This document shows, piece by piece, positions 3,352 through 18,047 of a stretch of DNA of 64,000 nucleotides (the first letter of the stretch is position 1; the number at the start of each line of letters is the position of its first letter). The stretch comes from Niastella vici (GTDB taxonomy: Bacteria; Bacteroidota; Bacteroidia; Chitinophagales; Chitinophagaceae), in the NCBI RefSeq assembly GCF_002077945.1, contig NZ_LVYD01000043.1:248001-312000 (forward strand), written 5' to 3'. The position numbers were made by a program, and so were the translations under genes. Below the pieces are notes generated by a model, which saw only the letters and a program-made list of their open reading frames with translations, was not told where the DNA came from and ran no database searches.

Positions 3352-3651
3352 CCTGAACAAACAGTTTTTTACTTTCCGTCGCTTCCACATTACATGGTTT
3401 AACATTGTTTACGCGTTCGCTAAAATTGATTTTCGTCAATATTTAGGCGTTGAACGGGGAGCGCACATTTTGACATATTTCCGGTCAACCCGCGCCATGC
3501 CGCTATTTCACAGTCTTTTACATACTAACAATAACGAAATCCTTAACCGATTTCCAAAATGGATTGGAAAATCAGCCATTTTTTTTTGATTTTAAGAAGG
3601 GCTATTTATAACTTGGGCCAATTACCTTATTAACCTTATTTCTGATTTGTA
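3352..3651. other. Intergenic region upstream of ECF sigma gene
   Basis: There is no supported gene; the ORFs here are shadows. A promoter-like pair lies at 3585-3615. I see no clear terminator behind the secreted-protein gene. Confidence 0.5.
3585..3615 (+). promoter_or_regulatory. Possible promoter of the locus 1 sigma gene
   Basis: TTTG (3585-3588) is separated by 19 bases from ATAACTTG (3608-3615), a partial match to the Bacteroidota -33 TTTG / -7 TAnnTTTG promoter. It lies 36 bases before the ATG at 3652. Confidence 0.3.
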
Positions 3652-4233
3652 ATGACAGATGAGCAATTAATGCAAAGTATTACAGACAAAGATCCTGCGG
3701 CGTTCAATGAGGTGTATGATAAGCTTTATCGAAAATTATTTTTATTTGCCAAAAGCTTGATCTATGACACAGAAGAAGCCCGGGACATTGTAGCTGAATC
3801 CTTTTTTAAACTATGGACACAGCAGAAACAGTTCTCCAATATGGCTCATCTACAGGTTTACTTCTATACCGTTATAAAAAATGCCTGTATCGACTACTTA
3901 CGAAAAGACAAATTAAGAACGAAGATCGAAAATCAGCTCATTAAGGCCGGTAATGTGCAGGAGAACGTGATAGAGCTGAAATTTCAGGAAGCCGAACTGG
4001 TGCAACTCCTGTACGAACGCATTAACCAGTTACCTGAAAGAATGCAACAGGTTTTCAAACTCACCTATTTAGATGGTTATACCAGGTCAGAGATTGCACA
4101 AATGCTGAACCTGTCTGAAAATACAGTGCGCAATACCAACGCCGCTGCCATGAAAGCGCTCAGGCTTACGCTGGGAGCCGAACAATTACTTATCCTGATC
4201 TCCCTGGCAGGCACTTTACAGCTGGCAAATTGA
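3652..4233 (+). CDS. ECF RNA polymerase sigma factor (locus 1)
   Basis: The 193-residue product is a typical sigma-70 region 2 / region 4 protein. Region 2 covers roughly residues 15-80 (FNEVYDKLYRKLFLFAKSLI, EEARDIVAESFFKLW). Region 4 covers roughly 125-175 (INQLPERMQQVFKLTYLDGY, the helix-turn-helix SEIAQMLNLSENTVRNTNAAA). Region 3 is absent, as in ECF factors. A hydrophobic tail (LLILISLAGTLQLAN) ends the protein. The FecR anti-sigma gene follows on the same strand 175 bases downstream, and the STN-containing SusC comes next. In this family the sigma factor is held by FecR and released when the receptor is loaded, and then transcribes the uptake operon. Confidence 0.92.
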   Translation: MTDEQLMQSITDKDPAAFNEVYDKLYRKLFLFAKSLIYDTEEARDIVAESFFKLWTQQKQFSNMAHLQVYFYTVIKNACIDYLRKDKLRTKIENQLIKAGNVQENVIELKFQEAELVQLLYERINQLPERMQQVFKLTYLDGYTRSEIAQMLNLSENTVRNTNAAAMKALRLTLGAEQLLILISLAGTLQLAN

Positions 4234-4408
4234 TTAAATGAACTTAATATATTAGTGTAAGCGTGTTGTTTATACGCACCTTTTGAAGATTTTTTCCCGC
4301 TCACTGGTACAAAATTTTATCCCGTACGTATATCATATAGCAGGTAACCGTAATGGTTAACTATTTATTATCCGGAGATACGCAAGCATCTCTGCCAAAG
4401 AAAGTGTA

Positions 4409-5653
4409 ATGATTGACAATAGCCCCATTAATGAAATAATAATCAAGACGATCACTGATTCTGCACTTACTTCCGCTGAAAGTGCGCTCCTTGATCAATG
4501 GCTTGCAGATGCAGAGAACAGCAAGCTGTTCGAGAACCTGAAAAATAAGGATTACCTGCTGCAGAAACTGAAAGAAGCACATGATGTTGATATGGAAGGG
4601 GATAAGGTGTTACTGCAACAAAAACTGGGCATAGGAAAGCGTATACATATAAGAAGGCAATGGAATTTTAGGTATGTAGCAACCCCGGCAGCAGCAGTTT
4701 TAATACTGGCTGCTGCTTCCATTTTATGGTTCATCAACCGCAAGCCGGTCAACAAACCGGTAAAGGAGAATACAGAAACTGTCACTGTTAAAGACATTCA
4801 ACCCGGCAAATCAGCGGCCCTGTTAACGCTGGCCGATGGCAACAAGCTGAAATTAAGTAGCTCGGCTTCCCGAAAACTGGCGCAACAGGGCGCCATGGTT
4901 CTCCTGAACGAAAATGGCACTTTAAAATATCAGGGACAGAACGGGCCACAAAACGGCGAATTGTTTAACACTTTAAGCACCGCCAATGCACAAACTTATG
5001 CAATGGAGTTGGCCGATGGCAGTAAAGTATGGTTGAATACAGGCGCATCGATCCGGTATCCGGTCGCATTTACCGGTAATGAAAGAAAAGTGGAGATAAC
5101 CGGTGAAGCTTATTTTGAAGTGGCGCACGATAAAACCAGGCCATTCATTGTGCATGTACCTGGTAATAATGGGAATGGTATGGATGTGCAGGTTTTGGGA
5201 ACGCATTTCAATATCAATGCATACAATGAGGCGGCAGTAATAAAAACAACGCTGCTGGAAGGTTCGGTAAAAATTAAACAGGGTAATATGGAAACCCTGC
5301 TTAAACCCCGCCAGCAGGCACAGGTAGGCAATGGTACAACTAAAGTATTGAAAGAGGTGGATGTGAAGGCTGCGGTAGCCTGGAAAAACGGCCTGTTCAA
5401 TTTTGACAATGCCGATATCACGGCTGTAATGGATCAATTGACAAAATGGTATAATGTAGAGGCGGTATATGAAGGGCCAAAGCCAACGAAATTATTTATG
5501 GGCGGAACCGGGCGTGACCAGTTGTTGTCCGATGCAGTAAAAATACTGGAGTTAACTGGTGGCGTACATTTTAAAATTGAAGGAACGAAATTGATTGTAA
5601 TGACGCCCGAAACATATGAGGCCCGGAAAAACAATGCAAAACAGCCAAAATAA
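4409..5653 (+). CDS. FecR-family anti-sigma factor / signal transducer (locus 1)
   Basis: The 414-residue protein has a cytoplasmic N-terminus (about residues 1-88) that should bind the sigma factor. One membrane span follows at about 89-109 (YVATPAAAVLILAAASILWF), then a periplasmic part. The FecR domain includes MELADGSKVWLNTGASIRYP, GEAYFEV and VLGTHFNINAYN. The C-terminal DUF4974 domain includes FNFDNADITAVMDQLTKWYN and ILELTGGVHFKIEG. The order sigma, FecR, SusC is the classical trans-envelope signalling layout: the periplasmic part is expected to meet the STN domain of the SusC encoded at 5922. Confidence 0.93.
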   Translation: MIDNSPINEIIIKTITDSALTSAESALLDQWLADAENSKLFENLKNKDYLLQKLKEAHDVDMEGDKVLLQQKLGIGKRIHIRRQWNFRYVATPAAAVLILAAASILWFINRKPVNKPVKENTETVTVKDIQPGKSAALLTLADGNKLKLSSSASRKLAQQGAMVLLNENGTLKYQGQNGPQNGELFNTLSTANAQTYAMELADGSKVWLNTGASIRYPVAFTGNERKVEITGEAYFEVAHDKTRPFIVHVPGNNGNGMDVQVLGTHFNINAYNEAAVIKTTLLEGSVKIKQGNMETLLKPRQQAQVGNGTTKVLKEVDVKAAVAWKNGLFNFDNADITAVMDQLTKWYNVEAVYEGPKPTKLFMGGTGRDQLLSDAVKILELTGGVHFKIEGTKLIVMTPETYEARKNNAKQPK

Positions 5654-5738
5654 ACTGTTTATATATTTTCATTCATCCTTTATTCTTTAACGGCAGGGTT
5701 CCAATAGCCCTGGTTAATGCCATTTAATGTAAAACCAT

Positions 5739-5813
5739 ATGAACCAATTAAACACCTTTACAACAACGACACCTTCTTTTAGCAATCAGTTAAAGCCAGA
5801 ACCCCTAAACTAA
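5739..5813 (+). CDS. Possible 24-codon leader ORF ahead of SusC 1
   Basis: ATG at 5739 opens a frame of 24 codons ending in TAA at 5811-5813 (MNQLNTFTTTTPSF...). It sits between FecR and SusC and ends 14 bases before the hairpin at 5828-5856. A short Thr-rich leader followed by a hairpin could be an attenuation device, but an ORF this short can occur by chance and no known family is recognised. Confidence 0.25.
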   Translation: MNQLNTFTTTTPSFSNQLKPEPLN

Positions 5814-5827
5814 ACTGGCAATAAAAA

Positions 5828-5856
5828 AGCCGGCGTGTCCACTAAACACTCCGGCT
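5828..5856 (+). promoter_or_regulatory. Hairpin in the FecR-SusC intergenic leader (locus 1)
   Basis: agccggcgtgt (5828-5838) pairs with acactccggct (5846-5856) across a 7-base loop, with one mismatch. A-runs flank both sides, so on the plus strand this is a leader hairpin and not a terminator. The opposite strand would have a T tail. A comparable GCCGG hairpin lies ahead of SusC 2 (20344-20369). Confidence 0.5.
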
Positions 5857-5921
5857 GTAAAAAAGGCCGATAATAATAACTGATTAGGAATCCTATTACT
5901 CAACCTTTCAACCACTAAGGT

Positions 5922-8900
5922 ATGCATTTTCGCAATTACCTGCGGGCTGTTATTTGCTATGCAGCCGGCAAAACCATTAACACATTAAAATCCATCGTAA
6001 GTATACGAGCCTTACGAATTATGAAGCTAACTGCAATATTACTAACCATAACCTTACTCCAGGTACAAGCGGCGGGGCTTTCCCAAACCGTTACTTATTC
6101 TGGCAATAATATTCAGCTTGAAAAGCTGTTTACTGTCATAAACGATCAAACCGGCTATACGTTCCTGTATACGGCAGATGTACTGAAAGGAACAAAAAAA
6201 GTAAGTGTACATGTAAAAGACGCCACCCTGGATGAAGTGTTGAACCTTGCCCTGAAAGATCAGCAGCTTGGTTATCATATAGCGAATAAAACAATTATCA
6301 TCTCCAGAAATAAGGAGGCGGAAGAAAGTAAACCTGCCGGTATAGCTACACCGCCCGGAGAAATAAAAGGGAAAGTATTAAACCATAAAGGCGAACCCCT
6401 GGGCGGCGCCAATATAAAAGTAAAAGGCACTACTATTGGCGGCATTACCAATGCCAATGGCGAATTTGAATTAAGAGGAGTGGGGGAGAACGCCATCCTG
6501 GAAATTTCCTATTTGGGGTTCGAAAGCCAGACAATAAATCTGGAAGGCCGCACCACCATCTCTGTGCAGCTGAAATTAGTAGAAAGCGAACTGGCATCCG
6601 TTTCTGTATCGGTATATACCGGTTATCAGCAAATACCGAAAGAAAGGGCAACCGGTTCTTTTGTTACGATCGATAATAAGTTATTAAACAGAAGCGCTTC
6701 TTCGGATGTTCTAGGGCGGTTAGAAGGCGTAACCAGTGGCCTGGCTTTTTACCGGAGCAGCAAAACCGAACAGGCTACATTGAATATTCGTGGCCGCAGT
6801 ACCATCTTTGCTGAAGTGCAACCCCTGATCGTATTGGACAATTTTCCTTTCGACGGTGATATCAACAACATTAACCCAAACACCATAGAATCGATCACCA
6901 TTTTGCGCGATGCAGCGGCTGCTTCTATTTATGGGGTAAGGTCGGCCAATGGCGTTATTGTGATCACCACAAAAAAAGGGAATACCAATACGCCGCCGCA
7001 GGTGCATTTTAATACAAATGTTATGGTGGGGGCCAGGCCCAACCTGAATTATTTTCCATTAATGTCGTCAACAGATTTTATTGAAGCCGAGAAAATATTT
7101 TTTTCAAAGGGCTGGTATACTACTGCCGAAAATAGTGCGAACAAATTCCCTTTAACCCCCGTAGTAGAATTGTTAATTAAAAAAAGGGATGGCTTGATGC
7201 CCGCCGCCGAGGCAGATCAGCAAATTGAAAACCTTAAGCAACATAATTTATATGATGAGTTTGATAAGTACTTTTTAAGGGACAGGGTTTTGCTGCAGAA
7301 TTCTTTGTCTATCTCGGGTGGCGGAAATAACTCCAGGTACTTTATGTCATTAAGTTATGATAAGGATAAAAACAGTTTTGTCAGGAACGGGTTCGATCGG
7401 TATTCAATTAATACTTCATACAGTTTTACGCCATTTAAGAATGTTGATATTAATACGGCGCTGCTCTATACTAACATGAAGGTAGCCAATAACAATCCTG
7501 GCATAAACGACCTGGTTTCATTAACCGGAAGAAAATATTATCCTTATGCCCAATTAATGGATGAGAACGGATGGGCGGTTCCGGTAAACTATGGATACCG
7601 GGCTACTTACAAATCATTAAAGGAAAGTCAGGGATTTCTCGATTGGCAGTACCGGCCGGTCGATGAGCTCAATTTCGCCGATAACACCACGCAGCAAAAT
7701 TATAATAAAGTAAACATTGAAGTACGCAAGACCTTTAGCAGCAGCTTTAATATAGAATTGAAATACCAGTATGAAAAGCAATTGCGGAAGGATAATAATT
7801 TAAGAAGCCAGGAAACGTATTTTACGCGGGACCTTATAAACAGGTATTATAATCCAACCGGTACAATCAAATACCCCGTTCCTTTAGGCGGGATCCTTGA
7901 TCAAACGGTAGCTGAACTGGAGGGCCATACAGGCCGGGCCCAGCTCAATTTTAACCACAAATGGCAACAACACCGGGTAAATGTGATCGGCGGGTTTGAA
8001 GTGAAGCAGTTGCAACAACGCAGCAATCTAAGCCGGTTATATGGATACAATGACGATATTGTAACCAGCCAGGTGATGGATTATGTGACCAAGTTCCCAA
8101 CCAATCCGGCATCAACGCTTACTGCAGTTCCGTACCCACGCACTGCAACCAGTACGCTGGATAGATACCTGTCTTATTATGCCAATGCCTCCTATACCTA
8201 TAATGACCGTTATGTTTTTTCAGCCAGCGGGCGGTTTGATAATACGAATTATTTTGGTGTAAAAAGTAATCAACGGATCGTGCCCTTATGGTCAATGGGT
8301 GTTAAATGGAATGTTTCGCGGGAAGAATTTTTCAAAACCGATCTGTTCGATCAGTTAGCCTTGCGGGCAACCTATGGCTATAATGGAAATATAAATAAAG
8401 GTCAAACAGCCTATACAACGGTAAGGTATGCGACTGTAGCATACACAGGAGCTCTCGGTGCAACGGTTGTTAGTCCGCCTAATCCCGAACTACGATGGGA
8501 AAGGTTGAATATGTTCAATGCCGGGGTTGTGTTTGCTTTAAAGAAGAATGTTCTATCAGGGACTATTGAATACTTTTCAAAAAAAGGAAAGGATATTATT
8601 GGCGATGCCGTCATGGATCCCACCACTGGGCTCACCAGTTTCAGGGGCAATATGGCGAATATTAAAGGACAGGGGATTGATGTGCAATTAACCGGAAAGA
8701 TAGTAAGTAATACCTTCAGCTGGAATGCAACTGTTTTATTCAGCCGCGCAACGGATAAGGTAACCAATTACACCAAGGCGTTCAGTGCGTCGGCTTTAGT
8801 TCAGCAGGGAAGTGGTGATGTATCGGGTTTAATGACGCCCGTTAACGGTTATCCAGTTTTAAGCATTTACAGTTTGGCCTGGGGAGGGCTCGATCCCACC

Positions 8901-9509
8901 ACCGGCGACCCGTTGGGGATCCTGAATGGTACAACCACAAATGTATACAGTGATATCTTCAGTAAGACCACACGAGATGAGTTGATCTATAACGGTCCGG
9001 CTAACCCGCCGGTAATCGGAGCATTCAGGAATGATTTTTACTGGAATGATTTCTCTGTATCAGTGAATATTACGTATAAGGCCGGACATTACTTTAGAAG
9101 ACCTTCCATCAATTATGGCCAGTTGGTTAACTTTTGGGCCGGCAACAAGGATTTCGTGAACCGGTGGCAAAAGCCAGGCGATGAAGCCAATACCAATGTG
9201 CCGGCCATCCCCGGTCAACTTCCCACTAATCTGAATTCGAGGGACCTGTTTTATCAATATTCATCAATACTGGTTGAAAAAGCTGATCATATCCGTTTGC
9301 AGGATATTGTAATAGGCTATGACTTTGATAAAGCGAAATGGGGAAGGCTGCGGTGTCAGAACGTTCATGTTTATTGCAATATCAATAATATCGGCATTCT
9401 GTGGCGGGCTAATAAATACGGCATCGATCCTGATGCCATTCCCAATGGGGATGCTCAAGTGCTGCCACAACCCCGCAGTGTGACATTGGGTGCAAAAGTT
9501 GATTTTTAA
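5922..9509 (+). CDS. SusC/RagA-type TonB-dependent transporter with STN domain (locus 1)
   Basis: This 1195-residue outer membrane transporter imports a large nutrient using TonB energy. A signal peptide is seen at MKLTAILLTITLLQVQAAG, whose Met is residue 34 (6021); the upstream 33 codons are in frame, and a similar extension occurs in SusC 2. Residues about 57-130 form an STN (secretin/TonB short N-terminal) domain, which marks receptors that signal to FecR. A CarboxypepD_reg-like domain follows at about 146-220 (GKVLNHKGEPLGGANIKVKG). The plug follows from about 235, after the linker GYQQIPKERATGSF, with the AAAASIYGVRSANGVIVITTKKG motif region. The barrel runs to the C-terminus (SVTLGAKVDF), ending in Phe as usual. 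SusD starts within 60 bases downstream. Confidence 0.93.
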   Translation: MHFRNYLRAVICYAAGKTINTLKSIVSIRALRIMKLTAILLTITLLQVQAAGLSQTVTYSGNNIQLEKLFTVINDQTGYTFLYTADVLKGTKKVSVHVKDATLDEVLNLALKDQQLGYHIANKTIIISRNKEAEESKPAGIATPPGEIKGKVLNHKGEPLGGANIKVKGTTIGGITNANGEFELRGVGENAILEISYLGFESQTINLEGRTTISVQLKLVESELASVSVSVYTGYQQIPKERATGSFVTIDNKLLNRSASSDVLGRLEGVTSGLAFYRSSKTEQATLNIRGRSTIFAEVQPLIVLDNFPFDGDINNINPNTIESITILRDAAAASIYGVRSANGVIVITTKKGNTNTPPQVHFNTNVMVGARPNLNYFPLMSSTDFIEAEKIFFSKGWYTTAENSANKFPLTPVVELLIKKRDGLMPAAEADQQIENLKQHNLYDEFDKYFLRDRVLLQNSLSISGGGNNSRYFMSLSYDKDKNSFVRNGFDRYSINTSYSFTPFKNVDINTALLYTNMKVANNNPGINDLVSLTGRKYYPYAQLMDENGWAVPVNYGYRATYKSLKESQGFLDWQYRPVDELNFADNTTQQNYNKVNIEVRKTFSSSFNIELKYQYEKQLRKDNNLRSQETYFTRDLINRYYNPTGTIKYPVPLGGILDQTVAELEGHTGRAQLNFNHKWQQHRVNVIGGFEVKQLQQRSNLSRLYGYNDDIVTSQVMDYVTKFPTNPASTLTAVPYPRTATSTLDRYLSYYANASYTYNDRYVFSASGRFDNTNYFGVKSNQRIVPLWSMGVKWNVSREEFFKTDLFDQLALRATYGYNGNINKGQTAYTTVRYATVAYTGALGATVVSPPNPELRWERLNMFNAGVVFALKKNVLSGTIEYFSKKGKDIIGDAVMDPTTGLTSFRGNMANIKGQGIDVQLTGKIVSNTFSWNATVLFSRATDKVTNYTKAFSASALVQQGSGDVSGLMTPVNGYPVLSIYSLAWGGLDPTTGDPLGILNGTTTNVYSDIFSKTTRDELIYNGPANPPVIGAFRNDFYWNDFSVSVNITYKAGHYFRRPSINYGQLVNFWAGNKDFVNRWQKPGDEANTNVPAIPGQLPTNLNSRDLFYQYSSILVEKADHIRLQDIVIGYDFDKAKWGRLRCQNVHVYCNINNIGILWRANKYGIDPDAIPNGDAQVLPQPRSVTLGAKVDF

Positions 9510-9566
9510 ATAATGAAAATTGTTTGCTGTAACCTGTTCCCTATACAATCAATAAAAAATACGCGC

Positions 9567-10937
9567 ATGCTTAATTATAAAATTATTTGGTTTGTTTTAG
9601 CAAGCATGGTTATGCTTTCCTGTAAAAAGGACTGGATCGAGGTGAAATCGGACAAATCGCTGGATGTGCCAACCTCTATTGAAGATTTCCAGGCTATGTT
9701 AGACAATGCGGTTATTATGAATGACAATCGCCCCTCATTGGGAGAGATCAGTGCTGATAACTATTATTTGACCGATGCATTATGGGATAGCTGGGTATCG
9801 ATAAACAGGAATGCACATATTTGGGCCGGCGATATATACAGCGAAATAACTACCGATCAATTCAATTGGAATACGTCGTACCGCCAGGTTTTTTATGCAA
9901 ATATTGCCCTGGAGGGAATTGATAAAGTTGAGCAGCAGGGATATAACGCGGCTGCCTGGAATAATGTAAAAGGCAGCGCGCTCTTTTTCAGAGGAGAAGC
10001 ATTTTTTAATTTGTCGCAATTATTTTCAAAACCGTATAGTTTAACAGGTACTGATGGCGCCGGTATTCCCCTTCGTCTGAATGCAAACCCTAATGACGCG
10101 TCTGTGCGGTCGGGCCTGCAGCAAACCTATGACCAGATCCTGAGCGATTTGCAGGGTAGTGTGGATTATTTGCCGGTGATCCCATTGTACAAGACACGGC
10201 CATCAAAACCGGCTGCTTATGCGCTGTTGTCAAGATTTTATCTGGTAAAACAGGATTATGTAAACGGGTTGAAATATGCCGATCTCTGTTTGAAATTGTA
10301 TGATTCGTTATTGGATTATAATACGCTTAATGCCAATGCCACTTTTCCCATTCCGGCATTAAACAGGGAAGTTATTTTTATGACAACAATGGAGAATGCG
10401 GCTTTCTTGCCTGGTACACATATTGTTGATTCAAACCTTTACAATGGTTATGATCTCAATGATCTGAGAAAGAAGATCCTGTATAGGGCTAACACGGCCG
10501 GCCAGTTATATTTCAATGGCACTTACACTGGCGGTGCCTTAATTCAGAACAGTAGAACTTTTGGTGGTATTGCTACAGATGAAGTATATCTCACAAGAGC
10601 GGAATGTTATGCCCGCACGGGAAATATCACCGCTGCCATGGACGATCTGAATGCAGTAATGAGTAAACGAATGAAGACCGGGTTCTTTGTTCCTTTCACC
10701 GCCGCCAACTCAGGTGATGCGTTGAAACTGGTATTGCAGGAAAGAAGAAAGGAAACGCCGTTCCGCGGTTTAAGGTGGCTCGATTTGAGGAGGCTGAACA
10801 GTGAAGGGGCTAATATAACGTTGACCCGAACGGTAAAAGGTCAGCTGTATACTTTACCGCCCAATGATCCAAAATACGTATTGCCTATTCCACCAGATGT
10901 TATTTCCCTTACAGGTATGAACCAAAACGAAAGATAG
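9567..10937 (+). CDS. SusD/RagB-family surface lipoprotein (locus 1)
   Basis: The 456-residue protein is the surface lid and substrate-binding partner of the SusC at 5922. I place the start at 9567 and not at the in-frame ATG at 9513, because MLNYKIIWFVLASMVMLSC is a complete lipoprotein signal with lipobox LSC and acceptor Cys at residue 19. SusD features include the helical TPR-like part (SALFFRGEAFFNLSQLFSKP, PAAYALLSRFYLVKQDY) and the C-terminal motif FRGLRWLDLRRLN followed by YVLPIPPDVI. It is shorter than many SusD proteins, as is common for SusD partners of STN-type SusC. A hairpin terminator follows at 10978-11001. Confidence 0.9.
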   Translation: MLNYKIIWFVLASMVMLSCKKDWIEVKSDKSLDVPTSIEDFQAMLDNAVIMNDNRPSLGEISADNYYLTDALWDSWVSINRNAHIWAGDIYSEITTDQFNWNTSYRQVFYANIALEGIDKVEQQGYNAAAWNNVKGSALFFRGEAFFNLSQLFSKPYSLTGTDGAGIPLRLNANPNDASVRSGLQQTYDQILSDLQGSVDYLPVIPLYKTRPSKPAAYALLSRFYLVKQDYVNGLKYADLCLKLYDSLLDYNTLNANATFPIPALNREVIFMTTMENAAFLPGTHIVDSNLYNGYDLNDLRKKILYRANTAGQLYFNGTYTGGALIQNSRTFGGIATDEVYLTRAECYARTGNITAAMDDLNAVMSKRMKTGFFVPFTAANSGDALKLVLQERRKETPFRGLRWLDLRRLNSEGANITLTRTVKGQLYTLPPNDPKYVLPIPPDVISLTGMNQNER

Positions 10938-11001: not shown

Positions 11002-11050
11002 CCTATTTTATGCCAGCTTTTTGCTTGACGGTAAACGTAAATTCATTAAT

Positions 11051-12325
11051 ATGAAAAAAATACTTTCGATAATAGGATTTGTATTATTTGTAAACGAGGG
11101 ATGGTCACAATCAGCTCAGGCCCTTAACAGTGAAGTATCTCTTATAAACCAATTATGCCCTGAGTTCTCATTTGATACCCTGCTGAATTATAACAAAGAA
11201 AAATTGGCTTTATCAGACTTAAAGGGAAAGGTTGTTATAATTGATTTTTGGGGAACGTTTTGCATTCCATGCATTAACGCTATTCCGAAAATGGAACAAT
11301 TGCAAAAGAAATTCGGGGATAGCCTGCAGGTGCTGATGGTGGCAACAGATGGGTTTCAAAAGGCAAAACAGTTTTATGAAACAAGGCAAAAGGCCAATAA
11401 ACCGATGTACCTGCCTTGCGCCATAAACCGGAAATTTGTTAAGTATTTCCAGTTAAATGGAGTTCCAACCTATGTTTGGATAGATGAGAAAGGCTTTATA
11501 AAAGCCATTACAGACCAGTCACAAATAACAGAACAAAATATTGGTGATTTTATCAGGGGTAAGCCTGTGCAGTTACGGCAAATGGTGAAAGAAGTCCGTA
11601 GGGATTATAAAAAAAGCCTTGTTGCCACAGCAAGCGAAATGGATAGCAGTAGCGTGCTGTATAATTCATCATTGACGAAATATTTAAGTGGTTTTACAAG
11701 CACCTATACGCCACTTACCAGGGGGCGAACAAAAGTTTCAGTGACCAATTTGTCGATCCCGCTGCTGTACCGCATAGCTTTTGGGGATACGGCCAATTCT
11801 ATAGAGTATAACAGAACAGTAATTGAATCGGCTCATCCGGAAAAGCTCAGCTGCCCTAAAAGCGAAAGTTTTGAAGCATGGAGGATTGATAATACGTTTT
11901 GTTATGAACTGATGGTGCCAAAAGAAAAGCAAAAAGATATCCTGAAAATAATGCAGGGCGAGTTAAAAAAAATGTTTGGGTATAATGCATTTCAGGAATT
12001 GCGTACTCAAAAATGTTTGGTACTGACTGCAGACAAGGACTTTCATTTTTGGGCAAGCAAAACTGTAATCCCTAAGGTTATATTCAGTACAGGTGGCATT
12101 ACCGTGACCAACTATCCTTTTGCTCAGTTTGCGGGAATGATCCAGCATTACATACCTGATAAAATTATCTTTGATGAAACCGGCATAACCGGCAATATTG
12201 ATATTGCTTTACAGGCAGAGATGAATGATGTTGATTCGGTAATGGAAGCGCTGAAAAAATTTGGCTTACATCTTCATTGGGAAGACCGGCAGGTACAAAT
12301 GCTGGTCATCAAAGATCCTGAATAA
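11051..12325 (+). CDS. Secreted thioredoxin-like protein fused to a DUF3738-like C-terminal domain
   Basis: The 424-residue protein begins at 11051 (MKKILSIIGFVLFVNEGWSQ, a signal peptide); the in-frame upstream start at 11021 would put a charged stretch ahead of it. The TlpA/redoxin domain covers about residues 35-175, with the active site GTFCIPC (C71, C74) and the cis-Pro region NGVPTYVWID. The C-terminal part (about 300-424), with GGITVTNYPFAQFAGMI, DETGITGNIDIAL and LHLHWEDRQVQMLVI, resembles the DUF3738/TIGR03435 family, which I identify by motif only. Thioredoxin-like partners are common beside FecR-linked SusC/SusD loci. The 3' end overlaps the convergent gene at 12309 by 17 bases. 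Confidence 0.8.
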   Translation: MKKILSIIGFVLFVNEGWSQSAQALNSEVSLINQLCPEFSFDTLLNYNKEKLALSDLKGKVVIIDFWGTFCIPCINAIPKMEQLQKKFGDSLQVLMVATDGFQKAKQFYETRQKANKPMYLPCAINRKFVKYFQLNGVPTYVWIDEKGFIKAITDQSQITEQNIGDFIRGKPVQLRQMVKEVRRDYKKSLVATASEMDSSSVLYNSSLTKYLSGFTSTYTPLTRGRTKVSVTNLSIPLLYRIAFGDTANSIEYNRTVIESAHPEKLSCPKSESFEAWRIDNTFCYELMVPKEKQKDILKIMQGELKKMFGYNAFQELRTQKCLVLTADKDFHFWASKTVIPKVIFSTGGITVTNYPFAQFAGMIQHYIPDKIIFDETGITGNIDIALQAEMNDVDSVMEALKKFGLHLHWEDRQVQMLVIKDPE

Positions 12326-13355
12326 AGCCCAGGTCATACAGAATGACAGTGTTGCTATAAATTGCATACAGGGTTTTATTAATTACATGGAACTGATGCG
12401 GTTTTTTCCCCTGATACGGTGGAATATAGAAGCTGCCTTTATACGAGCCGTTAATTAAGTTATATACATCAATCACGGCATTTTCTGTGAAATCCAATGA
12501 ATATTCATTGTCGGCTTGTAACATTGATTCCAAAAATAGCTTGCCGGCAGCTACAGCGCCCAGGTTATTCACGAATTGGGGGGGCTGCTTCATGGTATAC
12601 GATGATCCTACATGGGCTACCTTTATTTCTCTTTTAGTAAGCGTATCGATTGTGCGGGCCGTAAGTTTTAAATTGAGGTTAGTATCCATGCAAATAAACC
12701 CGTTTTGATAAAAATAGGTATAACATGCCAGATGGGTGGTTGAATCATAATACAGCATGCCATCGGTGGCGAAAGCATTCTGTTTATTCCTTTCTGTAAA
12801 GTGATCTTCAATGGCTGGATACTTGCTTTTTAAATCGATTTTCACAAAGATCGCATCATTCGTTTTCGGTTCAATTGTTTTTAAAATAAATTGATCTTTT
12901 GCGAAATTTGTTTCTTTTCCAAAGAATTTTTCAAGACCATACCTGTCAACATTGCCCGAGTCTAAATTATAGTCGAGGATGCCAGGCAGGTTACGGCATG
13001 CAATATAAAGATGCCGGCCGCGAACGAACATTCGAATGCTTGAATTTGCTTTTACATAAGGGGGGATGGGTATAGTGAGCGTTTTAAGGGAGTCGAGGTC
13101 AGCGTTTGTGCGGTGAACTGCGTAGGGTGTATTATCCTGAAAATAGATGGCGTCGGGTTGTAAGCCAATTATTCTACTGACAGATACAGGCAGGGTAACC
13201 AGTTTCCGAATTTTTAAGGTGCCGGTGAGCATTCGTCTTTTAAAACCATTCTTTTTTTCATTCGTGTTTTTTGCAAGGAATGCCAGCAAGGTTATAATAC
13301 CAAATGCTGCCAGAAATAATGTAATTAAGGTCAGGACTGGCTTCTTATTGTTCAT
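12309..13355 (-). CDS. Membrane-anchored, propeller-like protein of the MauE/peptide cassette
   Basis: This 348-residue protein has one N-terminal membrane span (about residues 8-28, LTLITLFLAAFGIITLLAFLA); the rest should face the periplasm. That part is made of short beta-rich blocks (DAIYFQDNTPYAVHRTNADL, SIRMFVRGRHLYIACRNLPGILDYNLDSGNV, GKLFLESML, INKTLYAIYSNTVILYDLG), which suggests a six-bladed beta-propeller of the BF3164-like kind. I do not recognise a named family. It is the last gene of a minus-strand cassette, separated from the peptide gene by a terminator at 13373-13408, so it may be made at lower level than the peptide. Confidence 0.75.
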   Translation of the reverse strand: MNNKKPVLTLITLFLAAFGIITLLAFLAKNTNEKKNGFKRRMLTGTLKIRKLVTLPVSVSRIIGLQPDAIYFQDNTPYAVHRTNADLDSLKTLTIPIPPYVKANSSIRMFVRGRHLYIACRNLPGILDYNLDSGNVDRYGLEKFFGKETNFAKDQFILKTIEPKTNDAIFVKIDLKSKYPAIEDHFTERNKQNAFATDGMLYYDSTTHLACYTYFYQNGFICMDTNLNLKLTARTIDTLTKREIKVAHVGSSYTMKQPPQFVNNLGAVAAGKLFLESMLQADNEYSLDFTENAVIDVYNLINGSYKGSFYIPPYQGKKPHQFHVINKTLYAIYSNTVILYDLGFIQDL

Positions 13356-13372
13356 AATAAAAGGTAATGAAT

Positions 13373-13408
13373 AAAAAATCTAACCACCGGCTGATTGCCG
13401 GTGGTTAG
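13373..13408 (-). terminator. Intrinsic terminator/attenuator between the peptide and propeller genes
   Basis: A perfect 12-bp stem is formed by 13380-13391 and 13397-13408 (ctaaccaccggc / gccggtggttag) with loop tgatt. On the minus strand it is followed by a T-run (13378-13373). It sits just past the stop of the 66-residue peptide gene. Confidence 0.85.
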
Positions 13409-13416
13409 AAAGCATT

Positions 13417-13617
13417 TTATTTAGTAACAGGAGTGAAAAATACAGGATTACCGGCATCATCTGTACAACAATAAGTATCGCCACCTGTGCATACCAGGCC
13501 TTTGGGATCTACCTTGCTGCATAGATCAAAGGTTTTTTGCACCTTGTTGGCCATTGTTGTTCCTGTAATTGCCAAAACGAGCGTTAAAGCGGCTAATGAG
13601 ATTCTTACTTTTTTCAT
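13417..13617 (-). CDS. Small secreted four-cysteine peptide (DUF6520-like)
   Basis: The 66-residue product has a clean signal peptide (MKKVRISLAALTLVLAITGTTMA). The mature part is about 43 residues with four cysteines at 33, 43, 50 and 51 (DLCSKVD, GLVCTGGDTYCCTDD), enough for two disulfides. It resembles the short secreted proteins grouped as DUF6520 in this phylum; I judge this from the pattern and have not searched. It lies 80 bases downstream of a MauE-like membrane protein that carries a CxC motif, and a strong terminator follows, an arrangement typical for an abundant small product. The function is unknown; a redox-matured signalling or antagonistic peptide is only an inference. Confidence 0.8.
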   Translation of the reverse strand: MKKVRISLAALTLVLAITGTTMANKVQKTFDLCSKVDPKGLVCTGGDTYCCTDDAGNPVFFTPVTK

Positions 13618-13697
13618 AATTCAGTCTGTTTTTTGTAAAACAGTAAATTTTAGTTTTGTTTATACCTACTCTTTTTTAGGTTTTCGGTATCCCCTAA

Positions 13698-14189
13698 TTA
13701 CGCGTAAATATTTTTATGCTGCATAAGGACGCCTGCAGCTGAAATGGCTACGAAGAAAACATTGAATACAACATGTTGATGCCACGATAAATTTTCCAGC
13801 ACCCCGCCACAGGAACAGGGAATATAATAGCTGAAATTCAACATGGTTATCAAATAAACCGTGAATAAGCTCATCAGGAAAAAAGATGCATACAGCGCGA
13901 TGAGCCGCGTCTTTTTTATAACCAATAAAAAAGAGATCAGAATTTCTATTGCAGGAATGGCCCAGGCAATGAGATTAGCGTAGGCCGTGACATAGGGCGA
14001 TTTGCTTAATTGAACGGTGAACCGGTCATAGTCAGATACTTTGCTCAATGCCGCATATATAAACAGCAAGATCAGCAGGGAACAAATAATTTCAATGACA
14101 GTGTTTTTTCTTAACCAGGAGATTGCGATCGGTTTTTGGAAAAAAGCTCCCTGGGTCAAGTAGCTGCTACCTAACGTTTCTTTTTTCAT
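13698..14189 (-). CDS. MauE/DoxX-like redox-associated membrane protein
   Basis: The 163-residue protein has four predicted membrane spans (about 31-50, 72-92, 96-116 and 138-157). Between spans three and four it carries YYIPCSCGGVLENLSWHQH, with C125 and C127. This CxC-GG motif followed by W and H is typical of the MauE-like proteins of this phylum. MauE of methylamine dehydrogenase gene clusters is thought to support disulfide formation or cofactor maturation. Here the likely client is the four-cysteine peptide encoded immediately downstream. The 230-base upstream region holds the 21-bp-spaced direct repeats at 14380-14412. Confidence 0.85.
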   Translation of the reverse strand: MKKETLGSSYLTQGAFFQKPIAISWLRKNTVIEIICSLLILLFIYAALSKVSDYDRFTVQLSKSPYVTAYANLIAWAIPAIEILISFLLVIKKTRLIALYASFFLMSLFTVYLITMLNFSYYIPCSCGGVLENLSWHQHVVFNVFFVAISAAGVLMQHKNIYA

Positions 14190-14379
14190 ACAAAAGGTTT
14201 ACATGCCAGGCCCCAATAAGGCCAGGCGGTATTTATCAAAAACTAATAAATGGTTTTTATGTATTGCACTTTCCCGGAAAGAAGGCTTTTACAGGTGCCA
14301 GTGGTTTATAACAATGCAAAAATGTAAGAAAATGTACCTGGTTTTATAACGATCATGTGCAAGTTACGTATCTGAAATT

Positions 14380-14412
14380 GGCGAATCCGGTAAAATTCAT
14401 GGCGAATCCGGT
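14380..14412. promoter_or_regulatory. Direct repeat pair, candidate AraC-type operator
   Basis: ggcgaatccggt occurs at 14380-14391 and again, identical, at 14401-14412. The starts are 21 bp apart, two helical turns, the usual spacing of AraC-family half-sites. The pair lies immediately past the stop of the AraC-type gene and about 190 bases upstream of the MauE start. Confidence 0.5.
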
Positions 14413-14418
14413 TTTTCT

Positions 14419-14784
14419 TCATTCCAGCATAAAGGTATGTGTGCTGTCGGGTGTATGCATTTTTCGCCATTGTAATGGCGCCATACCGGTTGTTTTTTTA
14501 AACTGCTTTACGAGGTTACTTACATCACACCCCACTTTTATAGCAATGGCCTTTACCGGCTCATCGGTTGTTTCAAGCATTTCTTTTGCCTTTTCTATAC
14601 GAACGCCAATAAGGTACTCATAAATTGTTTTATTATTTACATACTTAAAGCCTTTACGCAGTTTGCTTTCATTGGTTCGTACCCGCCGGGCCAAATTCGA
14701 ATGGGTGTTTGTATTCCTGTACTCGTTCTCTAAAATAGTTTTTACCTGGGCAATTTTATGCAGGTCATCGTTTGATAGTTTCAT
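14419..14784 (-). CDS. AraC-family transcriptional regulator, DNA-binding domain only
   Basis: The 121-residue protein is little more than the AraC double helix-turn-helix. The first HTH is near residues 25-50 (NTHSNLARRVRTNESKLRKG). The second lies near 70-115 (IGVRIEKAKEMLETTDEPVK, AIKVGCDVSNLVKQFKKTTG). No sensory domain is present, so it may respond to its own level or to a partner. It is co-directional with the MauE, peptide and propeller genes and likely regulates them; the direct repeats at 14380-14412 are a candidate site. Its C-terminal tail HTPDSTHTFMLE is unusual but short. Confidence 0.9.
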   Translation of the reverse strand: MKLSNDDLHKIAQVKTILENEYRNTNTHSNLARRVRTNESKLRKGFKYVNNKTIYEYLIGVRIEKAKEMLETTDEPVKAIAIKVGCDVSNLVKQFKKTTGMAPLQWRKMHTPDSTHTFMLE

Positions 14785-16361: not shown

Positions 16362-17096
16362 TTACTGGCCAACCGGGCCGTTTTTCCAGTACTTTATATT
16401 TTTCCAGCGGGTTTCTGACCGGGAACCGCTGATATTATATACGCCGCATTTGAAATAATGGGTGGCGTTACCGCGATCAGCAAAAGTTCCTTTCAACGTA
16501 CTGTTCAAATAAACATAGATCTTCCCGTTATCGGCATCATGCTGCACATTCACATGTATCCATTTATTATAGGCGCTGGTCATCAGGGTTTCATTATCGT
16601 AGCGTTTTATGGTGCCACCGCTGGCGGAATGAATTTTAAGCATAATGGCCGTTGCATTGGTAGCGCCCCCGAAAACCTGCATAATGTCGGTTCCGGCCGA
16701 ACCTGAAACTATATATACATCGCCTTCGAACTGATGCCTTCCTGAAGTGTAATCGTTATTCATGCGCAATTCTGACCGGGGCCCTGTGGTGCAGCCCTCA
16801 AATTGACATTCATCATCGGAATAGATCCAGAAATGATGTTCTCCACTTGAATAACTATACCGGTCAGATTGAGGAAGGTTCCAGGGCGTTTGTATACCAT
16901 AGGTGTAAGATGTTTGCGTCCAGCCGCTGGTTGGGTTTGCCTCCGTATGAATGGGCCGGTCATTGGGCTTGCGTTCGGCGGTGGAAGTAGAAGTTTTTTT
17001 ACAACCAGGCATTAACCCTGCAGTTAAAATAATCGCACATAGTAGGGCGATCCTGAGTAACGCAGTCAGGCTGCGTTTTGATGTAACAATGTTCAT
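16362..17096 (-). CDS. PL7-like polysaccharide lyase lipoprotein
   Basis: From the ATG at 17096 the product has 244 residues with a lipoprotein signal (LLCAIILTAGLMPGC, C32); an in-frame start at 17159 adds 21 residues of little sense. The rest is a jelly-roll lyase: GPRSELRM (R107-R111) matches the R(S/T)ELR motif of the alginate-lyase-2 (PL7) superfamily, and THYFKCGVYN matches its YFKxGxYN motif. IMLKIH falls in the middle strand. These motifs line the substrate cleft that cuts uronic-acid polymers by beta-elimination. The exact substrate (alginate, glucuronan or another) cannot be read from the sequence. It stands alone, upstream of the minus-strand sigma gene's 3' end, with no SusC/SusD partner directly attached. 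Confidence 0.75.
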   Translation of the reverse strand: MNIVTSKRSLTALLRIALLCAIILTAGLMPGCKKTSTSTAERKPNDRPIHTEANPTSGWTQTSYTYGIQTPWNLPQSDRYSYSSGEHHFWIYSDDECQFEGCTTGPRSELRMNNDYTSGRHQFEGDVYIVSGSAGTDIMQVFGGATNATAIMLKIHSASGGTIKRYDNETLMTSAYNKWIHVNVQHDADNGKIYVYLNSTLKGTFADRGNATHYFKCGVYNISGSRSETRWKNIKYWKNGPVGQ

Positions 17097-17438
17097 TGGC
17101 AAGTTGGTTTTAATGATTAATGAATAAGCAATGCTATCAACAGCGGCTATGGCAAGCACAATACAACGGGGCGCCGCAGTTGTATTGGCTGCCCGGCAGC
17201 CATTGAAACCAGTACTTAAAAATTAAGGAATCCGTTAGGGGAAAGCGGTAGGCCAATTGGCATTCTATTCGTATAAATTACCCCGCTACAAAATAAAAGA
17301 CCTTCCACCGGCCGGCTAATGGTTAAATGATGTGTCAAAAGATCATTTTTGGGCAAACTGCAAAAGGGAAGAGGGCTTATCTAAACAAATGGTCCTGTTT
17401 CCTAAGAACTGATAATTATTTATCAACGTTCAGCCATA

Positions 17439-18047
17439 CTATTTATAAATGAAAGTGGCCGCAATGATGATGGCCAGGGAGGCCCCGCCCAAATGAGATT
17501 TAAGGATCTTCAATGCCAGATAGATCTGTTTCTTTACCGTTTCTTCTGAAATTTGTAAGCGCTCGGCAATTTCCCGGTGGGTAAGCTGTTCCAGGCGGCT
17601 TAAGCGGAATACTTCCCGCATTTTGCCAGGCATTTTATCCATCAGTTGATCGATATTCGCTGCCAGTTCGCGGGCATAGAGCTCTTCTTCCACGGAGGGA
17701 AGACTATGATGCACCTCCATATAATTGGTAAAATCTTCCAGATACCCCCCGAGGATCATCTCCCTTTCGATGCGATCGATACATCGATAACGCACGGCGG
17801 TTTTCATATACGCTTTCAGATCAGCGATCTCAGGGAGATGCTGCCGCCTGTTCCATAAAGAAACAAATAGTTCCTGCACACAATCTTCTGCTTCTTTTTG
17901 GGAACGCAGCACATTCATGGCCTCGCGGAACAATGATTTCCAGTAACGTTGGTAGATGGCGGTAAATGCAGCTTTATCATTATGCGTAAGCTGTTGTAGC
18001 AGAAATTTGTCAGTATGTTGATCAAAGTCAGAAACCTGCATCTCCAT
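17439..18047 (-). CDS. ECF RNA polymerase sigma factor (locus 2)
   Basis: The 202-residue protein has sigma region 2 (about 25-90: FTAIYQRYWKSLFREAMNVL, EAEDCVQELFVSLWNRRQHL) and region 4 (about 125-185: LMDKMPGKMREVFRLSRLEQ, the HTH REIAERLQISEETVKKQIYLA). It ends in a hydrophobic tail (GGASLAIIIAATFIYK). Unlike locus 1, it diverges from its likely FecR partner at 19053, with a GyrI-like gene between them. It is still the nearest sigma to the FecR/SusC pair and probably drives that operon. The divergent intergenic region contains repeated TGTCAG sites. Confidence 0.92.
   Translation of the reverse strand: MEMQVSDFDQHTDKFLLQQLTHNDKAAFTAIYQRYWKSLFREAMNVLRSQKEAEDCVQELFVSLWNRRQHLPEIADLKAYMKTAVRYRCIDRIEREMILGGYLEDFTNYMEVHHSLPSVEEELYARELAANIDQLMDKMPGKMREVFRLSRLEQLTHREIAERLQISEETVKKQIYLALKILKSHLGGASLAIIIAATFIYK

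What the first reader, a model, noticed from the sequence alone, without database searches (positions are those of the whole stretch)
12309..14784. AraC regulator, MauE-like protein, small four-cysteine secreted peptide and propeller protein: an uncharacterised cassette
Seen: a co-directional set in which a 66-residue secreted peptide with four cysteines follows a membrane protein carrying a CxC-GG motif. Known: MauE-like proteins are linked to disulfide and cofactor maturation. Inferred: the membrane protein oxidises the peptide, and the propeller protein anchors, senses or processes it. A small exported peptide with a redox partner and its own regulator could be a signalling or antagonistic system.
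Basis: partly seen in the sequence, partly recalled or inferred. Interest (0 to 1): 0.72.

Follow-up and report, generated by a model that had tools for sequence, protein, structure and literature searches.

The report
Cysteine-peptide cassette facing a SusCD locus
A small secreted peptide with paired cysteines is found in many Bacteroidota genomes together with a membrane redox protein, a propeller protein and, usually, an outer-membrane uptake system facing it, which suggests an undescribed system that makes a disulfide peptide and uses it with that uptake system.

Summary
The four genes are real: AraC-type regulator, MauE, 66-aa four-cysteine secreted peptide and propeller, all on the minus strand. 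The core is conserved far beyond the window. In 60 propeller loci MauE is adjacent or fused in 58 (33 single-ORF MauE-propeller fusions; the other two are cut by contig ends), and a cysteine peptide was found by script in 56, after inspection in 59. In 80 named MauE loci: 76 and 71. Cysteines are even in number in 55 of 56 distinct peptides. All ten Pfam DUF6520 (unknown function) hits over cut-off in 118 genomes lie 0-742 bp from a MauE match. Best reading: a MauE-propeller inner-membrane thiol oxidoreductase forms disulfides in a cognate abundant peptide that serves a cognate SusCD system. Oxidation and the peptide-SusCD link are inferred. AraC is only partly conserved. Whether the peptide is a signal, chelator, toxin or resident partner is open.

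The parts
14419..14784 (-). AraC-type solo HTH regulator, 121 aa
   Evidence: HTH_18 E=1.4e-16; codirectional AraC within 800 bp upstream in 19 of 57 and 28 of 79 loci
13698..14189 (-). MauE/DoxX-type membrane protein, 163 aa, PCSCGG motif at residues 124-129
   Evidence: PF07291 113.7 bits; PC-x-CGG invariant in 19 of 19; modelled as four TM helices in a relative's fusion
13417..13617 (-). 66-aa secreted peptide, four Cys (C-x9-C-x6-CC)
   Evidence: purifying selection pN 0.23 / pS 0.67; DUF6520 match below cut-off, 14.5 against 25.4 bits
13379..13409 (-). terminator-like hairpin (13-bp stem, 5-nt loop, then TTTTTTATTC) after the peptide gene, before the propeller gene
   Evidence: similar signal after the peptide in 42 of 58 loci, after MauE or the fusion in 1 of 58
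12309..13355 (-). inner-membrane-anchored beta-propeller protein, 348 aa
   Evidence: AF2 model pLDDT 86.6, TM helix 5-27; no Pfam family over cut-off
11021..12325 (+). TlpA-type thioredoxin (CIPC) with C-terminal DUF3738, convergent; 3' end overlaps the propeller gene by 17 bp
   Evidence: AhpC-TSA 5.8e-13 and DUF3738 3.5e-7; CxxC in 29 of 30 similar proteins incl. this one
9513..10937 (+). SusD-type lipoprotein
   Evidence: SusD-like_3 E=9.6e-35, SusD_RagB 5.1e-9
5922..9509 (+). SusC-type TonB-dependent transporter with N-terminal STN signalling domain
   Evidence: STN 4.4e-13, Plug 3.6e-12, barrel 2.5e-13
4409..5653 (+). FecR anti-sigma/sensor
   Evidence: FecR 1.7e-15, FecR_C 3.9e-15
3652..4233 (+). 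ECF sigma factor
   Evidence: Sigma70_r4_2 1.3e-14, Sigma70_r2 1.8e-10

Best explanation
The cassette makes and handles a disulfide-bonded peptide for a dedicated SusCD system. Shown by sequence: MauE and the propeller are a pair (fused in many genomes); the peptide lies beside them in nearly all loci read and has paired cysteines; a SusC/SusD locus, usually with a thioredoxin or S9 peptidase, converges on them in most. Inferred: the peptide is exported by Sec; MauE, a four-helix membrane protein whose CxC motif faces the periplasm, passes electrons from peptide (or TlpA) thiols to the quinone pool and so forms one or two disulfides; the propeller, held on the inner membrane next to MauE, docks the peptide. 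The peptide is made in excess over its machinery (terminator after its gene). The finished peptide then acts with its cognate SusCD, either as its cargo or ligand outside the cell or as a periplasmic partner; where STN-SusC, FecR and ECF sigma are present (as here) the SusCD half is a signal-transducing receptor.
For: MauE beside or fused to the propeller in 58 of 60 loci (2 contig-cut), 33 fusions; peptide in 56 of 60 by script, 59 of 60 after inspection. MauE-motif sample: 76 and 71 of 80. Even Cys in 55 of 56 distinct peptides against 90 of 129 control ORFs, and in 60 of 62 further ones. DUF6520 over cut-off: 10 of 10 within 0-742 bp of the MauE match. Convergent S9, TlpA, SusD or SusC gene in 50 of 60 loci, two more when the other ten were followed; in 20 of those 50 followed for about 15 kb, SusD+SusC 20 of 20, TlpA 10, S9 6, FecR 13. 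Fusion and S9 peptidase diverge together (Mantel r 0.87, n=29), as do fusion and mature peptide (0.74). Terminator-like signal after the peptide 42 of 58, after MauE/fusion 1 of 58. Fusion model: four TM helices, a fifth helix and a propeller, pTM 0.84, CxC between helices 3 and 4.
Against: No reaction or binding is shown. Mantel correlation shows shared inheritance, not contact. Of the ten of 60 loci without a convergent SusCD-type gene in the first flank, eight still lack it when followed: L032 and L040 have SusC/SusD in another arrangement, L100 and L129 have RND-type transporters, and L031, L034, L041 and L042 show none. Most weaker propeller loci lack the module: of 13 read (L130-L142) the MauE profile hits 4. 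S9-type loci show no TlpA beside SusD. One peptide has 3, one 5 and one 7 cysteines. L095 has no peptide that I could find.
Confidence: 0.5

Rival explanations
1. The mature peptide is a diffusible product (signal, bacteriocin-like antagonist or metal chelator) and the SusCD pair is its receptor or transporter; STN-SusC, FecR and ECF sigma form a self-sensing loop.
For: The peptide changes faster than its machinery (pN 0.23 against 0.13 for MauE, 0.15 for propeller); divergent paralogous units within one genome, fusion identity 0.49 in 20 within-genome pairs against 0.44 between genomes; FecR in 12 of the 13 followed loci without an S9 or unlabelled large gene beside SusD. Other modified peptides of Bacteroidota are reported to co-occur with SusC/SusD and, in one cluster, a secreted prolyl oligopeptidase (PMC12636315, abstract and Discussion read).
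Against: No immunity-like or peptide-specific export gene was recognised (none was searched for specifically); FecR is in only 1 of the other 7 followed loci; nothing shows the peptide outside the cell.
Confidence: 0.28
2. The peptide is a resident periplasmic redox partner or small subunit of the MauE-propeller/TlpA machine that supports a SusCD nutrient-uptake locus (for disulfide-bearing or redox-active substrates); it is not a product.
For: TlpA with CxxC in 29 of 30 similar proteins; TlpA beside SusD in 10 of 20 followed loci; S9 peptidase in the other type; SusCD loci are commonly uptake loci (established knowledge).
Against: Fast evolution, changing cysteine number (2, 4, 6, 8) and an own terminator suggest a product rather than a fixed subunit.
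Confidence: 0.25
3. A methylamine-dehydrogenase-like enzyme: propeller large subunit, cysteine-rich small subunit with a tryptophan-derived cofactor, MauE and a MauD-like thioredoxin for maturation.
For: Same list of parts as the mau operon (recalled): propeller, Cys-rich small subunit, MauE, thioredoxin-like MauD.
Against: The window peptide has no Trp, and 23 of 56 distinct peptides have any after residue 20; no solved-structure relative by profile; no methylamine dehydrogenase among the 50 Foldseek rows shown of 743.
Confidence: 0.03
4. Ordinary chance neighbours with no shared function.
For: Each gene belongs to a widespread type.
Against: Adjacency, fusion and controls.
Confidence: 0.02

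Closest known systems
mau operon: MauE/MauD maturation of the methylamine dehydrogenase small subunit (recalled; the speculated role of MauE in disulfides as told in PMC7794033, passages seen)
   Same: MauE of the same Pfam family, a thioredoxin-like partner in the TlpA-type loci, a secreted cysteine-rich small polypeptide and a propeller protein
   Different: No conserved tryptophan for a quinone cofactor; propeller is membrane-anchored and often fused to MauE; linked to SusCD, not to amine oxidation
mauE-bearing RiPP-like candidate clusters of Streptomyces (decRiPPter, PMC7794033, passages seen)
   Same: MauE homologue in a cluster with a small cysteine-rich predicted precursor; authors suggest a role in modifying it
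   Different: Precursors with at least 8 cysteines, Streptomyces; no propeller or outer-membrane transporter in the passages seen
MNIO (ChrH/DybH) peptide and lipoprotein clusters of Bacteroidota (PMC12636315, abstract and Discussion read)
   Same: Secreted modified peptide in Chryseobacterium and other Bacteroidota; clusters frequently co-occur with SusC/SusD, one encodes a secreted prolyl oligopeptidase
   Different: Modification by an iron enzyme on a C-terminal motif; the words MauE, DoxX, propeller, disulfide and DUF6520 occur nowhere in its main text
Pfam DUF6520 (PF20130, unknown function)
   Same: A flavobacterial-type peptide of the cassette is a member (34.8 bits), and all 10 hits over cut-off in 118 phylum genomes lie by MauE
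   Different: Window peptide itself scores below cut-off and mature parts do not align significantly
STN-SusC / FecR / ECF-sigma TonB-dependent transducers
   Same: The plus-strand half of the window has all these domains
   Different: Faces a conserved peptide cassette; ligand unknown

Membership tests
MauE (PF07291) | profile score over curated cut-off | tested here: met
   113.7 bits against 27
MauE (PF07291) | conserved CxC motif between the last two TM helices | tested here: met
   PC-x-CGG in 19 of 19; between helices 3 and 4 in the fusion model; that this motif defines the family is recalled
DUF6520 (PF20130) | profile score over cut-off for the window peptide | tested here: not met
   14.5 bits against 25.4, match confined to residues 1-31
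DUF6520 (PF20130) | profile-profile similarity of the mature part | tested here: not met
   no significant mature-only match; the full-length match of the wider set (E 9.4e-8) leans on the signal peptide
DUF6520 (PF20130) | same gene neighbourhood (MauE, propeller, SusCD) | tested here: met
6-bladed beta-propeller DUF5128 (PF17170) | profile score over cut-off | tested here: inconclusive
   none of 22 cassette propellers matched it, but the L129 and L132 propellers found with their profile are over cut-off (28.1 and 31.6 against 22.9)
Methylamine dehydrogenase system | tryptophans for the TTQ cofactor in the small subunit (recalled) | tested here: not met
   window peptide has no Trp; any Trp after residue 20 in 23 of 56 peptides
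Methylamine dehydrogenase system | large-subunit (MauB) homology of the propeller | tested here: not met
   no PDB sequence match with the profile up to E=1
TonB-dependent transducer with FecR and ECF sigma | STN domain on SusC, FecR and ECF sigma genes adjacent | tested here: met
   (window)
RiPP cluster | chemically modified peptide beyond disulfides | not testable with these tools
   needs mass spectrometry
RiPP cluster | known modifying enzyme such as an MNIO in the cassette | not tested
   no scan for MNIO genes was made in these loci

The most novel reading that the evidence does not exclude
Each unit is a self-sensing pair: the bacterium makes an abundant disulfide peptide with a dedicated MauE-propeller oxidase and reads it back, oxidised, through a cognate signal-transducing SusCD/FecR/ECF receptor, with TlpA or an S9 peptidase reducing or clearing the imported peptide. 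That would be a family of redox-gated peptide ligands for TonB-dependent transducers across Bacteroidota and would give DUF6520 a function.
Probability: 0.15. Interest if true: 0.88.

Novelty: new variant of a known kind. Interest (0 to 1): 0.62.

Why it matters
It places a propeller group without a Pfam family and a Pfam family of unknown function (DUF6520) in one conserved unit with a clear biochemical hypothesis (MauE-driven disulfide formation) and a clear candidate partner (a cognate SusCD pair). If the peptide is the ligand or cargo of that SusCD, many SusCD pairs that look like nutrient importers would instead handle self-made peptides. Named environmental strains such as Chitinophaga pinensis (L203) and Longitalea luteola (L179) carry it, so it can be tested by gene removal and mass spectrometry.

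Tried and rejected
Methylamine-dehydrogenase-like enzyme: rejected on the missing tryptophan. Bacteriocin name from NCBIfam (JUQZ/BLB8, E=0.093): rejected, the match covers only residues 1-29 and the named bacteriocin comes from Brevibacillus (listing only). DUF6900 and other weak propeller matches: below cut-off. PDB profile searches with the propeller and MauE alignments gave nothing up to E=1. Foldseek rows shown are varied propellers; DUF4221 3s9j has TMq 0.54. Filing the window peptide in DUF6520 by sequence: not done, since the mature parts do not align. Papers: DUF6520, NVEALA, and '6-bladed beta-propeller' with MauE found 0 papers each; MauE with DoxX one listing on RNA viruses; broader searches gave the two papers used. 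I say only that these ten searches of that library found no description of the unit; other listed papers were not opened. A sigma-70 promoter scan gave 7 sites against 9.9 in shuffles, so no promoter is claimed. Weaker propeller matches: of 29 weaker rows, 14 loci were fetched; 13 of them (L130-L142) were left out of the 60-locus counts and L129 was taken in because its MauE and peptide resemble the cassette (without it: MauE 57 of 59, peptide 58 of 59). In the 13 the MauE profile hits L132, L135, L137 and L141, and RND-like genes are in L130, L132, L134 (weak), L137 and L138.
Full report
WHAT IS THERE. Its stop is followed by a perfect 13-bp hairpin and T-run. A terminator-like signal follows the peptide gene in 42 of 58 loci, and MauE or the fusion in 1 of 58.

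HOW CONSERVED. The window propeller was found in 17 of 195 genomes of the same family, and its profile in 47 of 395 genomes of the phylum (E<=1e-4; the weaker ones are distant propellers). I read 60 propeller loci including the window: all 22 matches, all 36 further matches below E=1e-60, plus L100 and L129. MauE is fused to the propeller in one ORF in 33, adjacent in 25, and not seen in 2 whose upstream side is cut by the contig end (L016, L026). A secreted peptide with at least two cysteines was found by script in 56 of 60; on inspection it is there in 59 (L031, L108 and L110 have a start or length my filter missed or misjudged; L026 shows a cysteine-bearing ORF without a visible signal near the contig end; the L100 candidate, 395 bp away, is less certain) and was not found in L095. 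A second sample, the 80 best of 275 MauE loci found by a motif that ignores neighbours but ranked by likeness to the window MauE, gave the propeller in 76, a peptide in 71 and SusD in the held flank in 66 of 80; some loci are in both samples. Named hosts with propeller and peptide include Niastella, Longitalea, Chitinophaga, Pedobacter, Dyadobacter, Flavobacterium, Aequorivita, Muricauda, Maribacter, Polaribacter and Chryseobacterium. The window's own genome has ten MauE genes, of which only the window one showed this propeller.

THE CYSTEINES. Of 56 distinct peptides from the 60 loci, 45 have four cysteines after residue 20, eight have two, one six, one eight and one three: 55 of 56 even. Control ORFs of the same size and signal-like start with at least two cysteines in the same loci are even in 90 of 129 (binomial p=8e-8, not corrected for relatedness). 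The 62 further distinct peptides of the named set are even in 60. Two-cysteine members keep only a C-x6-8-C pair (8 of 8), which suggests that in four-cysteine members the central two pair with each other and the outer two with each other (inference). The window pattern, as C-x7-9-C-x6-7-CC, is in the seven nearest named loci L175-L181 (two of them are L023 and L024 again), and as C-x4-C-x6-CC in the distant L129.

DUF6520. A flavobacterial-type peptide of the cassette (L092) is a member of Pfam DUF6520 (34.8 bits against 25.4). Searching that family in 118 phylum genomes gave ten hits over cut-off in eight genomes (an eleventh, below cut-off, is not counted), and all ten lie 0-742 bp from a MauE or MauE-propeller match. 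In this sample the family of unknown function is thus the MauE-linked peptide; one of the ten is by a MauE without propeller, in the window's own genome. The window peptide occupies the same place but is too diverged to be scored a member (14.5 bits; mature-only profile comparison not significant).

THE OTHER HALF. On the plus strand an ECF sigma, FecR, STN-bearing SusC and SusD and a TlpA-type thioredoxin with DUF3738 run towards the cassette, the last overlapping the propeller gene by 17 bp. In the flank first held, 50 of the 60 loci have a convergent S9 (33), TlpA-DUF3738 (12), SusD (23) or SusC gene. The other ten were followed further: L025 and L102 also have the convergent TlpA or S9, SusD and SusC; L032 and L040 have SusC and SusD in another arrangement; L100 and L129 have RND-type transporters; L031, L034, L041 and L042 show none. 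Of the 50, I chose 20 to follow for about 15 kb (so this is not a random sample): SusD and SusC are convergent in 20 of 20; the gene beside SusD is TlpA-DUF3738 in 10, an S9 peptidase in 6, an unlabelled 786-aa protein in 1 and none in 3; FecR is found in 13, namely in 12 of the 13 loci without S9 or the unlabelled gene and in 1 of the other 7. In the fused type, MauE-propeller and S9 sequences diverge together (Mantel r=0.87, 0 of 2000 permutations, n=29), and the mature peptide follows (0.74). Seven genomes among these loci carry two or more fused units, whose fusions are about as different (20 within-genome pairs, mean identity 0.49) as units of different genomes (0.44). So the SusCD half and the peptide half tend to be inherited, and to multiply, as one unit.

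HOW IT PROBABLY WORKS. The 506-aa fusion of L092 is modelled with high confidence as four TM helices, a fifth long helix and a propeller (pTM 0.84), with the CxC motif between helices 3 and 4. With the N-terminus inside (positively charged N-terminal and 2-3 loops, no positive charge in the 3-4 loop of the window MauE), the CxC and the propeller both face the periplasm, where the Sec-exported peptide arrives (inference). MauE has been speculated to act in disulfide formation (PMC7794033, passages seen). I therefore propose that MauE-propeller is a membrane thiol oxidoreductase with a docking platform and that the peptide is its abundant cognate substrate. What the oxidised peptide does with the SusCD pair is not shown. 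Precedent that modified peptides of Bacteroidota co-occur with SusC/SusD and, in one cluster, a secreted prolyl oligopeptidase comes from the MNIO clusters (PMC12636315, abstract and Discussion read), whose products' function is also stated to be unknown.

LIMITS. All is inference from sequence, gene order and models. The AraC gene is found in about a third of loci by a weak search (19 of 57, 28 of 79). The 60-locus set contains near-duplicates and leaves out 13 weaker propeller loci that were read (in 4 of these the MauE profile hits). My signal-peptide test is a crude charge and hydrophobicity rule. SusC in the followed loci was marked as long enough for STN by length only; STN was tested only in the window. 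SusC, SusD, TlpA, S9, FecR and ECF in relatives were labelled by similarity to single query proteins, so unlabelled genes may hide further relatives.

Noticed in passing
L083 (G000:C102:187466-196376), 3501-6588: Same genome: a MauE gene followed by a small ORF and a 716-aa protein with a kinase and a LANC_like domain (class III/IV lanthipeptide-synthetase type), so MauE also sits in a lanthipeptide-like cluster.
   Followed up: partly
L084, L085, L086, L087 (G000 contigs C24, C74, C54, C56): Four further MauE genes of the same genome stand with roughly 510-aa proteins (the two of L084 match no Pfam family) and a lipoprotein of about 165 aa, thioredoxin-like in L084; a secreted cysteine peptide is seen in L084 and L085, while L086 and L087 end at the contig.
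   Followed up: partly
L089 (G000:C45:245023-253933): MauE between two DUF6520-like peptides (one over cut-off, one below), convergent with genes that by eye look like SusD and SusC, without the propeller: a reduced form of the unit.
   Followed up: partly
L129, L100, L130, L132, L137, L138: Distant propeller loci carry RND-type transporter genes near the propeller (L129 tested as ACR_tran, the others by similarity to it); small secreted cysteine peptides in five of the six; MauE profile hits in four (L129 PCSCGG, L100 PCGCGG, L132 and L137 CGC).
   Followed up: partly
window 12309-12325: The TlpA-DUF3738 gene and the propeller gene overlap tail to tail by 17 bp; L023, L024 and L016 overlap similarly.
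   Followed up: no
window 16362-17159 (-): Alginate-lyase-type protein (PF08787, E=2.1e-15) next to a further ECF sigma gene (17439-18047, -), with no seen link to the cassette.
   Followed up: no
L035, L037, L039: A second, similar secreted cysteine peptide gene lies in the same locus, which suggests duplication of the peptide.
   Followed up: no
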